A stretch of DNA of 64,000 nt, from the NCBI RefSeq assembly GCF_002930645.1, contig NZ_PSNW01000009.1, forward strand, positions 124,001 to 188,000. Reading direction: 5' to 3'. The translations under genes and the position numbers were made by a program. Positions 52,192 through 58,502 of this stretch are shown here, one piece after another (the stretch's first letter is position 1; the number at the start of each line of letters is the position of its first letter). The notes beneath the pieces are model-generated. The model saw nothing but the letters and a program-made list of their open reading frames with translations, had not been told where the DNA came from and made no database searches. The DNA is from Solimonas fluminis (GTDB lineage Bacteria; Pseudomonadota; Gammaproteobacteria; Nevskiales; Nevskiaceae).

Positions 52192-54732
52192 TCAGCGGCC
52201 GTAGCGGGCCTTGACCGTCGCCGGCAGGAACTCCGAGTCCTTCATCGCTTCGCCGTACTTCGGCGGCGGGTCGCGGTCATTGAGCCGGTTGGCGAAGTAG
52301 CGCCCGTCCTTGAGGTCGTAGGTGAAGACCGGCGCGGTGTTGGCGAACTGCGCGTCGTAGAAGGCCAGCAGGTGGCCTTCCTGGAAGCGCCAGGGCTGCC
52401 CCTGCCGGTCGTAGTTCTCCACCAGCACCACGTTCCAGCTGTCCTCGTCGACATAGAACACGCGCTTGCCGAAGCTGTGGCGCTTGCCCTCGCGCTCCAG
52501 CGCCTCGATCACCCACACGCGGTGCAGCTCGTAGCGCATCACGTCCTGCCGCGGGTGGCCCGGCCGCAGCAGGTCCGGCGCCTTGACGCTGCCGTCGAGC
52601 AGGCGATAGCCGTTGTAGGGAATGTAGATCTCGCGCTTGCCGGTGAGCTTCCAGACGTAGCGGTCGAAGGCGCCGTTGTACATGTCGATCATGTCGACGA
52701 ACATCAGCCCGTCGGCGCCCGGGAACGGCTGGTCATAGCCCACCGGCGGGATGCGGAACATCTTGTTGATCTTGGGCGGCAGCACCCAGATGTCCCGCGG
52801 GTTCTCCTCGGAATTGGCGGTCTCGTGCACCAGCACGAGGAAATCCGTGTCGTTGCGCGAACGGCCGAACCAGGTCAGGTAGTACAGCAGGATGTTGGAC
52901 TTGGACAGGTCTGCCGGTGCGCGCAGGTTGCCGTAGCGGAAGGCCACCCGCTCGATCTGCTTGAGCGTCTGCAGCCGGCCGCTGGCCTGGACCACGGCCT
53001 GCGTGGATTGCGCGTCCACGGAATCCCCCCGGTAGCGGGTGCGGTGGTTCCACATGACCTCGACGCCGGACTGCGGCCGCGGGAACGGCACGCCCAGCTT
53101 CGCCCCCTCCAGAGCGTCGGAGCCCAGCAGCCTCGCCTTGCCGACATTGGCCTTGGTGGCATCGTAGATCGCCTGCGGATAGGCCACGCTGCGGCGCGTC
53201 GGATAGACCGGCATCTGGTAGCCGGGGTAGCGCGCCAGCAGGGCCTGGTGGCTCGGCGTCAGGCGGCCGCGGTACTGCGCGGCATTGGCGGCGGTGATCG
53301 TGAACAGCGGCTTGTCGCCCGCATAGGGGTTGGCCAGCCGCGCCCCGGGGCTGCCGCCCTTGGCCAGGCCGCCGGTCCAGGCCGGGATCGTACCGTCGGC
53401 GCTGCCGGGGCGGTCGGCGCCGATCGGCGTGTAGGGATCGCCGCCGGACTCGCCCAGCGTCACGCTGGCCTGCTGCCCGGAGGACAGCGCGAAGCTCTCG
53501 CCGCTCATGCGGCCACTGAGCTGGAAGCCGCCGTCGCCGCGCTGGCGCCGCTGCGCCGCCGCGGCCAGCGCCTGCTCGCGCGCCTGGCCGGATTCGAGAT
53601 AGCGCACCCACTCCGCCGCCAGCTTCCTGGCCGGGGCGAACTGCGCCGCCTCGCGGAAGGCCAGCAAGGCACCCTCCACGTCCGCCTGCTGGTAGCGGGC
53701 CATGCCCAGCGCCAGCAGGGTGTTGCCGTCCTTGCCGCCGCGCTGCACGGCCTTGTGCAGCGCATCGGCCGCCGCCGCGTATTCCTCGCGGTCCAGTCGC
53801 AGCTGGCCGAGCTGGCGGTAGAGCGCCGCGTCCGGCTGCAGCTTCAGCGCCTGCTCCAGGGCCGCGGTGGCCGGGACCGCCTCGCGGGCGGCGATCCACA
53901 GGCCGGCCAGCAGCTTCCAGTTGGCGGCATCGGCCTTGAGCACGCCCTTCTGCATCCAGGCCTGCAGCAGCGAGCCGGCCTCGAAAGGAGCACCGATCTG
54001 GGCCGTGAGCTGGACCAGCCGCAGGCGGTCCTCGGGCTTGTCGAGGAAGCCCATGCGGTTGGCCAGCTCCATCACCGCCTGCGCGCGCTCCTTGCTGCCG
54101 TAGCGGATCGTGGCGGCCGCCAGCCGCATCCAGTCGTCGCGCTGGCTGGGGTCGCGCTTGAGCAGCGTCTCCAGCACCGGCAGGGCTTCCTTCTCCTGCC
54201 CGGCGCCGAACAGCGCCGCCACCAGCGCGCGCTGCCAGCTGGCATCCGGGCTCTTCACAGCGGCCAGGCCCTTCTGCAGCAGCGGCACGGCCTCGCGGAA
54301 ACGCTTCTGCTCGACGTAGGCCGCGCCCAGCGCCACCAGGGTTTCCGGCGCCGCGTTGCCGGCCTTCACCTGCGCCTCCAGCTGCGGCAGCACGCGCTTG
54401 AAGTCGCCGCCGGCCAGGTAGAGCTGCGACAGGTCGCGGCGCATCTGCTCCGCGGCGATGCCGGACAGCGCCTTGGAGGCCAGGGCCTGTTCCAGGTACC
54501 TGGAGGCCTGGGCGTAGTCCTTCTTCGCCACGGCCTGCGCCGCCAGCTCGCGCAGCAGCAGGGCCTTGGCGTAGGGATCGGTGGTGGTCTGCAGCTGCTG
54601 CTGGGCACTCTTCTGGGGCGCCTGCTGCGGCACGCTGTCGAGTTCCTTGACCTCGCTGCGGTACTGGTCGGCGCGCGCGACGCCCATGGCCAGCAGGCCC
54701 GCGAGGACGAGAAGGAGGCGGGATCGGATCAT
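52192..54732 (-). CDS. TPR-DUF1329 fusion protein of the TonB2 operon
   Basis: An 846-residue exported protein (signal peptide 1-21, ARA-DQ). Residues about 55-410 form around ten TPR-like helical repeats (for example DYAQASRYLEQALAS, YVEQKRFREAVPLLQ). Residues about 440-846 are a DUF1329 domain (DRPGSADGTIPAWTGGL, VEVMWNHRTRYRGDS, DMIDMYNGAFDRYVWKL, FYVDEDSWNVV). Known TonB2 operons of Vibrio and relatives end with a TPR protein; here that gene carries DUF1329 as an extra domain. Its ATG overlaps the TonB stop as ATGA. The TPR part could dock on TonB/ExbBD or an outer membrane protein while DUF1329 handles a lipophilic cargo (inference). Confidence 0.85.
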   Translation of the reverse strand: MIRSRLLLVLAGLLAMGVARADQYRSEVKELDSVPQQAPQKSAQQQLQTTTDPYAKALLLRELAAQAVAKKDYAQASRYLEQALASKALSGIAAEQMRRDLSQLYLAGGDFKRVLPQLEAQVKAGNAAPETLVALGAAYVEQKRFREAVPLLQKGLAAVKSPDASWQRALVAALFGAGQEKEALPVLETLLKRDPSQRDDWMRLAAATIRYGSKERAQAVMELANRMGFLDKPEDRLRLVQLTAQIGAPFEAGSLLQAWMQKGVLKADAANWKLLAGLWIAAREAVPATAALEQALKLQPDAALYRQLGQLRLDREEYAAAADALHKAVQRGGKDGNTLLALGMARYQQADVEGALLAFREAAQFAPARKLAAEWVRYLESGQAREQALAAAAQRRQRGDGGFQLSGRMSGESFALSSGQQASVTLGESGGDPYTPIGADRPGSADGTIPAWTGGLAKGGSPGARLANPYAGDKPLFTITAANAAQYRGRLTPSHQALLARYPGYQMPVYPTRRSVAYPQAIYDATKANVGKARLLGSDALEGAKLGVPFPRPQSGVEVMWNHRTRYRGDSVDAQSTQAVVQASGRLQTLKQIERVAFRYGNLRAPADLSKSNILLYYLTWFGRSRNDTDFLVLVHETANSEENPRDIWVLPPKINKMFRIPPVGYDQPFPGADGLMFVDMIDMYNGAFDRYVWKLTGKREIYIPYNGYRLLDGSVKAPDLLRPGHPRQDVMRYELHRVWVIEALEREGKRHSFGKRVFYVDEDSWNVVLVENYDRQGQPWRFQEGHLLAFYDAQFANTAPVFTYDLKDGRYFANRLNDRDPPPKYGEAMKDSEFLPATVKARYGR

Positions 54733-57750: not shown

Positions 57751-58502
57751 GGGGCGGCTCCGGCGGCGGCCACCGGCATCGGCAGCGTCAACAGGTCAGG
57801 GGCGGCGGTCTCGCGCGCGATCTTCATCGCCAGGCGCAATTCCTTGACGTACTTGCGGGAGATGGGCTCCCACTTGCGCGAGGCGGCATCCCAGCCCCAG
57901 GCGTCGGCGCCGTCCAGCGCCACCGCGAACAGGGCGCTGCGGCCCACGCGCAGGATGTCCACCATGCGCTCCTCCACCTGCCCGCGCTCGGCGCCCAGGC
58001 CGCGGCCGTAGTCGGCCTCGATCTGGTAGGCCTCCAGCACGCGGCGGAACTTCTCCGCCGTGGCGGTCTCGCTCTCGGTCATCATGCGGCGCAGGTTGGC
58101 CACGCGCTCCTTGCGCTCGTCCTGCAGAAACGGCAGGTCCAGGGCGATGAATTTCTCCAGCGAATCGAGCATGCGCAGCATCAGCGGCATCATGTCGCCG
58201 CCGGCACGGTCCAGGTCCGCCAGCTGGCGCTGCAGGCTTTGCTTCTCGGCTTCCTGCGCCGCCAGCAGCGGCTCGATCTGGTTGGCATAGACGCGCAGCT
58301 GCTGCGCCTGCCAGGTGGCGGCGCGGTAGCGCTCCAGCATCGCCCGGGTCTGGTCGTCGGACTGGTTGACGCGCTCCTGCGAGGCCGCGCTGGCCTTGCC
58401 GGCCTGGACGGTGGCGTCGATCGCCCGCGATACCGGATCGGTCTGCGCAGCGGCCGTCGCCGCGAGCAGCGCGGCGCTCGCCGCCAAGAGAATCTTCTTC
58501 AT
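57747..58502 (-). CDS. DUF3450 periplasmic coiled-coil protein
   Basis: A 251-residue exported protein (signal peptide 1-19, AAA-QT), mostly helical and coiled-coil in residues about 25-175. Family marks: LPFLQDERKERVANLRRMM, TAEKFRRVLEAYQIEADYGR, GRSALFAVALDG and AWGWDAASRKW. DUF3450 is regularly the first gene of TonB2/TtpC operons. It is probably a periplasmic partner of TtpC (inference). A start at 58502 has GTAAGG-type upstream sequence and gives a clean signal peptide. Confidence 0.88.
   Translation of the reverse strand: MKKILLAASAALLAATAAAQTDPVSRAIDATVQAGKASAASQERVNQSDDQTRAMLERYRAATWQAQQLRVYANQIEPLLAAQEAEKQSLQRQLADLDRAGGDMMPLMLRMLDSLEKFIALDLPFLQDERKERVANLRRMMTESETATAEKFRRVLEAYQIEADYGRGLGAERGQVEERMVDILRVGRSALFAVALDGADAWGWDAASRKWEPISRKYVKELRLAMKIARETAAPDLLTLPMPVAAAGAAP

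What the first reader, a model, noticed from the sequence alone, without database searches (positions are those of the whole stretch)
52192..58502. TonB2-type operon ending in a TPR-DUF1329 fusion
The order DUF3450, TtpC, ExbB, ExbD, TonB, TPR matches known TonB2 systems of Vibrio and relatives. Here the TPR protein carries a full DUF1329 domain (about 400 residues), whose fold is LolA/LolB-like. This physically links an outer-membrane lipid-type binding domain to a TonB motor, suggesting energised movement of a lipophilic substrate.
Basis: partly seen in the sequence, partly recalled or inferred. Interest (0 to 1): 0.65.

Follow-up and report, generated by a model that had tools for sequence, protein, structure and literature searches.

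The report
TonB motor fused to lipid-carrier domain
In one order of bacteria that includes hydrocarbon degraders, the helper protein of a TonB energy motor has long carried an extra domain shaped like proteins that ferry greasy molecules across the cell envelope, which suggests, but does not prove, a motor-powered conveyor for lipids or hydrocarbons.

Summary
Window 52192-58502 (minus strand) is a tightly packed TonB2-type operon: TtpB (DUF3450), TtpC, ExbB, ExbD, TonB, TtpD. TtpD is one 846-residue reading frame: a complete TPR protein, a disordered linker and a complete mature DUF1329 domain. The fusion is no artefact. It occurs as one open frame in 58 of 85 genomes of the order; outside it, only in both genomes of one other family. 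The other 75 class genomes with a match have plain TtpD. The fused DUF1329 domains form one clade (100/99), are more conserved than the TPR half, and have a predicted LolA-like fold (Z 18-21).

New here: in 9 of 29 fusion-bearing genomes the operon lies beside, or within about 10 kb of, a HAE3/MMPL transporter, usually with a LolA-like carrier. None of 21 plain-TtpD operons does; 10 of those sit by peptide ABC importers. A strong orthologue of that transporter occurs in all four fusion carriers of a class-wide sample but only five of 365 other genomes.

Best reading: a TonB2 system specialised for moving a hydrophobic molecule between the outer membrane and a tethered LolA-like carrier. Substrate, direction and contact with TonB are untested. 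New variant of a known kind.

The parts
52192..54732 (-). TtpD-DUF1329 fusion, 846 aa: signal sequence about 1-22, TPR superhelix 43-395, disordered linker 396-430, DUF1329 (LolA-like) 431-846
   Evidence: Pfam; model; alignment; fold
54729..55442 (-). TonB, 237 aa, N-terminal membrane anchor, TonB_C at 156-219
   Evidence: Pfam TonB_C 4.5e-10
55449..55859 (-). ExbD, 136 aa
   Evidence: Pfam ExbD 6.6e-28
55869..56405 (-). ExbB, 178 aa
   Evidence: Pfam MotA_ExbB 3.8e-21
56398..57750 (-). TtpC: DUF3450-like N-terminus plus ExbB-like C-terminus, 450 aa
   Evidence: Pfam MotA_ExbB 1.5e-25, DUF3450 6.5e-5
57747..58502 (-). TtpB (DUF3450), first gene of the TonB2-type set
   Evidence: Pfam 2e-72; start codon and ribosome-binding-like AAGGAAA read
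58535..59332 (-). Alpha/beta hydrolase, 32 bp upstream, probably the first gene of the same operon; present in 14 of 31 fusion loci and 0 of 21 plain loci
   Evidence: Pfam Abhydrolase_6 4.9e-27; context table
51682..52131 (+). DUF6918 protein, convergent, conserved neighbour
   Evidence: Pfam 6.5e-39
50289..51572 (-). ABC1/UbiB-like kinase, conserved neighbour (start approximate)
   Evidence: Pfam ABC1 2.4e-54; 19 of 31 fusion loci
48848..50200 (-). Free-standing DUF1329 protein, 450 aa
   Evidence: Pfam 2.2e-120; tree
47301..48662 (-). Free-standing DUF1329 protein, 453 aa, syntenic in relatives
   Evidence: Pfam 4.2e-128
46700..47200 (-). DUF2505 protein, conserved neighbour
   Evidence: Pfam 9.6e-31; 19 of 31 fusion loci

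Best explanation
A TonB2-type energy-transducing system (TtpB-TtpC-ExbB-ExbD-TonB-TtpD) whose TPR subunit TtpD is permanently fused to a LolA-like DUF1329 carrier, and which has specialised in moving a hydrophobic molecule. Shown: the operon, the fusion, its single origin and long conservation, the LolA-like fold of the domain (by prediction), and linkage in several lineages to a LolA-like/HAE3 RND transporter pair. Inferred: proton flow through ExbB/ExbD/TtpC drives TonB against an outer-membrane protein; the TPR superhelix docks on the TonB complex; the DUF1329 domain, on a linker of about 35 residues, collects or delivers the hydrophobic molecule at the outer membrane and exchanges it with free DUF1329/LolA-like proteins and an HAE3 RND transporter at the inner membrane. 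I lean slightly to uptake, because characterised TonB2 systems import; the direction is not shown.
For: Complete operon. TtpD is essential for TonB2 transport in Vibrio vulnificus (PMC6957404). The fusion is conserved and of single origin. The DUF1329 half is more conserved (67%) than the TPR half (56%) and keeps almost all family-conserved positions. LolA-like fold: 9tp6 Z 21.4, 4z48 Z 18.7, 3bk5 Z 18.0. HAE3/MMPL transporter, usually with a LolA-like gene, adjacent or within about 10 kb in 9 of 29 genomes, with a 4-bp overlap with ttpB in L054; 0 of 21 plain-TtpD loci. Class-wide co-occurrence 4/4 versus 5/365. Free DUF1329 proteins work with DUF1302 and RND proteins in growth on monoterpenes and Tween 20 (PMC6394551, PMC10866462).
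Against: No interaction with TonB was tested. No receptor gene lies by the operon in the window's genome, and plug-domain receptors lie within reach in only 2 fusion loci. The transporter linkage is absent from the window's own genus, where the module is on another contig, and one carrier (G012) lacks it. Related genomes are not independent, so the co-occurrence is weaker than its p-value. The fold match shows a hydrophobic-cleft architecture, not a cargo.
Confidence: 0.45

Rival explanations
1. Envelope housekeeping rather than nutrient uptake: the TonB2-type motor helps move an endogenous lipid (phospholipid, hopanoid, pigment or similar) between inner and outer membrane, with fused and free DUF1329/LolA-like proteins and the HAE3 RND transporter as carriers, in the manner of HpnN.
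For: The locus is stable and vertically inherited over the order, next to housekeeping genes and not to catabolic genes. The linked RND protein is of the HAE3/HpnN kind and has a cyclic-nucleotide-binding domain. The neighbourhood also holds an ABC1/UbiB-like kinase and DUF2505.
Against: Free DUF1329 systems with a known phenotype concern exogenous hydrophobic substrates (PMC6394551, PMC10866462); characterised TonB2 systems import (PMC6957404). Neighbours such as MutS show that part of the synteny is not functional.
Confidence: 0.28
2. An ordinary TonB2 importer (for example of iron chelates) in which the DUF1329 domain is an accessory for protein contacts or positioning at the outer membrane and carries no cargo.
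For: TtpD2 serves siderophore uptake in Vibrio (PMC6957404). RseB and MucB show that LolA-like folds can be used for sensing or contacts (fold relatives at Z about 6; function from general knowledge). In one genome (G012, L056) the operon is followed by a two-component system and a TonB-dependent receptor.
Against: No Fur box in the window at up to 3 mismatches from one consensus. The DUF1329 half is the better conserved half and hardly differs from free carriers at conserved positions. Plain TtpD paralogues coexist in many of these genomes and sit beside peptide importers or receptors.
Confidence: 0.22
3. Assembly or reading-frame artefact, or a recent accidental fusion of no consequence.
For: None found.
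Against: The same single open frame occurs in 58 of 85 genomes of the order, several of them in one or few contigs; one clade with 100/99 support.
Confidence: 0.01

Closest known systems
TonB2 system of Vibrio vulnificus, TtpB2-TtpC2-ExbB2-ExbD2-TonB2-TtpD2 (PMC6957404)
   Same: Same six genes in the same order; last gene a TPR protein of about 425 residues
   Different: Vibrio TtpD2 has no DUF1329 domain; that operon is iron-regulated with a Fur box, none was found here
AmeABCD of Castellaniella defragrans and related DUF1302/DUF1329/HAE3 systems (PMC6394551; PP_0765/PP_0766 in PMC10866462)
   Same: A DUF1329 periplasmic protein; HAE3-family RND transporter (linked to the fusion operon in some relatives)
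   Different: DUF1329 is free, partnered with a DUF1302 barrel and a YCF48-like protein, with no TonB motor; no DUF1302 gene near the fusion
LolA/LolB lipoprotein carriers, including LolA3 of Porphyromonas gingivalis (9tp6, PMC13103446)
   Same: Predicted fold of residues about 124-414 of the domain (Z 21.4 to 9tp6; 7-8 to classical LolA)
   Different: DUF1329 has an extra N-terminal part of about 120 residues, low sequence identity, and is fused to a TPR protein
BstA/BstB/BstC sterol transport proteins of Methylococcus capsulatus (PMC10942540)
   Same: RND/MMPL transporter with periplasmic lipid-binding partners, one with TPR-like helices
   Different: No TonB motor and no DUF1329; the linked RND protein matches the BstA model only marginally

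Membership tests
TonB2-type (Ttp) energy transduction system | Contiguous genes for DUF3450 (TtpB), TtpC, ExbB, ExbD, TonB and a TPR protein (TtpD) | tested here: met
   same set in the relatives
TonB2-type (Ttp) energy transduction system | TonB with N-terminal membrane segment and TonB_C domain | tested here: met
   TonB_C 4.5e-10; hydrophobic N-terminus visible in the translation
TonB2-type (Ttp) energy transduction system | TtpD is a TPR protein only, without further domains | tested here: not met
   DUF1329 fused at the C-terminus, 1.7e-111. I treat this as an added domain on a full set, hence a variant rather than a plain member
TonB2-type (Ttp) energy transduction system | Energises TonB-dependent receptors; TtpD needed for transport | not testable with these tools
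   Needs mutants; known only for Vibrio (PMC6957404)
DUF1329 (PF07044) | Match over nearly the whole profile above the curated cut-off | tested here: met
   373.6 bits against a cut-off of 23.1, profile 1-356 of 368
LolA/LolB superfamily fold | Half-open antiparallel beta barrel with helices covering the cleft | tested here: met
   Predicted model pLDDT 94.8; Z 21.4, 18.7, 18.0 to 9tp6, 4z48, 3bk5
LolA/LolB superfamily fold | Binds an acyl chain or other hydrophobic ligand in the cleft | not testable with these tools
   Coordinates and ligand data not available here
DUF1302/DUF1329/HAE3 RND transport system (AmeABCD type) | DUF1302 outer-membrane protein gene next to the DUF1329 gene | tested here: not met
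   23 DUF1302 copies in the genome, the only one on contig C34 about 110 kb away
DUF1302/DUF1329/HAE3 RND transport system (AmeABCD type) | HAE3/MMPL RND transporter encoded with it | tested here: inconclusive
   Adjacent or near in 9 relatives, not in the window's genus, where an orthologue lies on contig C31

The most novel reading that the evidence does not exclude
A TonB motor that carries its own tethered LolA-like carrier and, with an HAE3 RND transporter and a LolA-like partner, forms a proton-driven conveyor for a lipid or hydrocarbon across the periplasm: TonB energy used for hand-over of a hydrophobic molecule and not only for opening a receptor.
Probability: 0.3. Interest if true: 0.75.

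Novelty: new variant of a known kind. Interest (0 to 1): 0.5.

Why it matters
How hydrophobic molecules cross the periplasm with an input of energy is poorly understood, and the DUF1329 family (24 copies in this genome alone) has no settled mechanism. An old, single-origin fusion of a DUF1329 domain to a TonB2 subunit gives a physical handle: pulling down one protein could catch motor, carrier and cargo together. It also gives a first hint of what TtpD, whose exact job in TonB2 systems is unknown, may position in the periplasm.

Tried and rejected
Artefact reading: rejected. Other long DUF1329 frames in the genome (1045-1233 aa) were not accepted as further fusions: they look like open-frame extensions in GC-rich DNA, one running over a DUF1302 gene; the extensions themselves were not searched for domains. 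Fur box: none. Promoter and terminator scans: nothing above shuffles. TtpC tree: fusion operons group together, but with support of only 42, so nothing is built on it. The first receptor-plug profile used the wrong strands and was redone. A first receptor probe with a single protein missed the two receptors near fusion loci that the profile found. Literature: 13 held papers mention DUF1329 and 2 mention DUF3450 with TonB, none by title or abstract about this fusion; searches joining TonB or RND with LolA-like or MMPL terms gave nothing. The named-genome scan returned only seven fusion loci because its patterns were flooded by free DUF1329 genes.

Full report
What is there. The minus strand of window 52192-58502 encodes DUF3450, a TtpC-like protein, ExbB, ExbD, TonB and a TPR-DUF1329 protein, with overlaps of 4-8 bp or gaps of 6-9 bp. 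This is the gene order of the TonB2 system of Vibrio vulnificus, where the first and last genes are called ttpB2 and ttpD2 and both are essential for TonB2-dependent siderophore uptake (PMC6957404). The fusion is therefore a TtpD with a DUF1329 domain added. The TPR part has the length of a complete TtpD (about 400 residues), and the DUF1329 part starts at the motif LTPxGAxxxGNADGxIPxW that follows the signal peptide in free-standing members, so two whole proteins appear to have been joined.

Is it real and old? A 452-residue query (TPR part plus the start of DUF1329) found the same single open frame through most of the family, and full-length fusion frames were read in 50 loci, 38 of them distinct places. 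Over the order 58 of 85 genomes have it (my count: match reaching query position 440 or more of 468 in an open frame of at least 750 residues). It is missing from genera g17 and g21 of family f6. Named carriers are Hydrocarboniphaga daqingensis, Panacagrimonas perspica, and Nevskia, Stagnimonas and Abyssibacter relatives; NCBI places Hydrocarboniphaga in Nevskiales, Nevskiaceae. In 369 genomes of the class only four have the fusion: two from the order and both genomes of family f117; the other 75 with a match have plain TtpD. A phylum-wide sample of 398 gave no further case. In a tree of 82 DUF1329 domains all fused ones form one clade (100/99), and its sister group contains the free DUF1329 genes that lie just downstream in the same locus. 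One ancient joining, perhaps of a copy of the neighbouring DUF1329 gene, fits best; that last step is inference.

Is the domain working? Mean identity to the window protein is 67% in the DUF1329 core, 56% in the TPR part and 38% in the linker. Only two alignment columns consistently separate fused from free members. A model of the whole protein shows a TPR superhelix (43-395), a disordered linker and a beta-rich domain (pTM only 0.53, so the relative placement of the halves is not predicted). The domain alone models at pLDDT 94.8 and matches LolA3 of Porphyromonas gingivalis (Z 21.4, 238 residues), the solved DUF1329 protein 4z48 (Z 18.7) and 3bk5 (Z 18.0); classical LolA and LolB follow at Z about 7-8. 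The fold is shown by prediction only, and a fold does not show a cargo.

What surrounds it. In 31 loci (29 distinct genomes; L041/L261 and L097/L225 are the same places) the operon is often accompanied by DUF6918, an ABC1/UbiB-like kinase, a free DUF1329 gene, DUF2505 and MutS. MutS shows that part of this is plain synteny. More telling, in nine genomes an HAE3-type MMPL transporter with a cyclic-nucleotide-binding domain, in seven of them with a detected LolA-like gene (PF17131), lies directly upstream or within about 10 kb; in L054 the transporter gene overlaps ttpB by 4 bp. In the window's own genome the same module sits on another contig as LolA-like, MMPL, SDR, GreB; SDR and GreB genes also lie between module and operon in some family members (L051), so module and operon were probably neighbours earlier (inference). 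None of 21 plain-TtpD operons has the module; ten of them lie by peptide ABC importers, whose binding protein is never seen by the fusion operon. Over the class, a strong transporter orthologue (E below 1e-190, at least 41% identity) occurs in all four fusion carriers and in five of 365 other genomes. Fisher tests give 0.007, 2e-5 and 2e-7 (the first two used 31 loci), but relatedness of the genomes makes these too optimistic.

Outer-membrane partner. Not found. The own genome has 18 receptor plug domains, none on the contig of the window. A plug profile finds a receptor near 2 fusion loci (L054, on the other strand; L056, after a histidine kinase and response regulator that directly follow the fusion gene) and near 4 plain loci.

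What DUF1329 does elsewhere. The family works with DUF1302 barrels and HAE3 RND transporters: AmeB is needed for growth on monoterpenes (PMC6394551), PP_0766 for Tween 20 (PMC10866462), and such operons fall in aromatic regulons (PMC6449761). This genome has 24 DUF1329 and 23 DUF1302 genes, one pair beside an MMPL transporter and a desaturase-rubredoxin protein of the alkane-hydroxylase type. The fusion operon itself has no DUF1302 nearby.

Mechanism. Most likely the PMF-driven TonB complex acts on an outer-membrane protein while TtpD's TPR part holds the DUF1329 carrier within reach, so that a hydrophobic molecule is passed to or from it and on to soluble LolA-like proteins and an RND transporter. 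Shown: parts, fusion, age, fold (predicted), linkage. Not shown: binding of TonB, the outer-membrane partner, cargo, direction. The main rival is an endogenous-lipid route; the stable locus without catabolic genes fits it nearly as well. A plain iron importer with a passive extra domain remains possible.

Verdict. It is a new variant of the TonB2 system, of interest because it makes the question whether TonB can power hand-over of a lipid directly testable, but its function is inferred.

Noticed in passing
L209 3462-11608 (own genome, contig C32): DUF1302, free DUF1329, MMPL transporter and a fatty-acid-desaturase/rubredoxin protein of the alkane-hydroxylase type lie side by side on one strand: a likely alkane-use cluster that supports a hydrophobic-substrate role for DUF1329.
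   Followed up: partly
L054 13684-16410 and its orthologues: The HAE3/MMPL RND transporter carries a C-terminal cyclic-nucleotide-binding domain and is often preceded by a LolA-like gene and an AAA_16 protein of about 900-1100 residues.
   Followed up: partly
G034 contigs C91 and C151: One genome carries two copies of the TPR-DUF1329 fusion.
   Followed up: no
L056 12599-16928 (G012): Here the fusion gene is directly followed by a histidine kinase, a response regulator and then a TonB-dependent receptor; this carrier lacks the MMPL orthologue.
   Followed up: partly
L229 (own genome C17, also contig C19): A second TonB2-type set with two ExbD genes appears, with the same ExbD coordinates spacing and scores, at the ends of two short contigs: a duplicated system or an assembly repeat.
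   Followed up: no
window 15762-27235: Two very long minus-strand frames (1474 and 2370 aa) that look like polyketide-synthase-type megaproteins.
   Followed up: no
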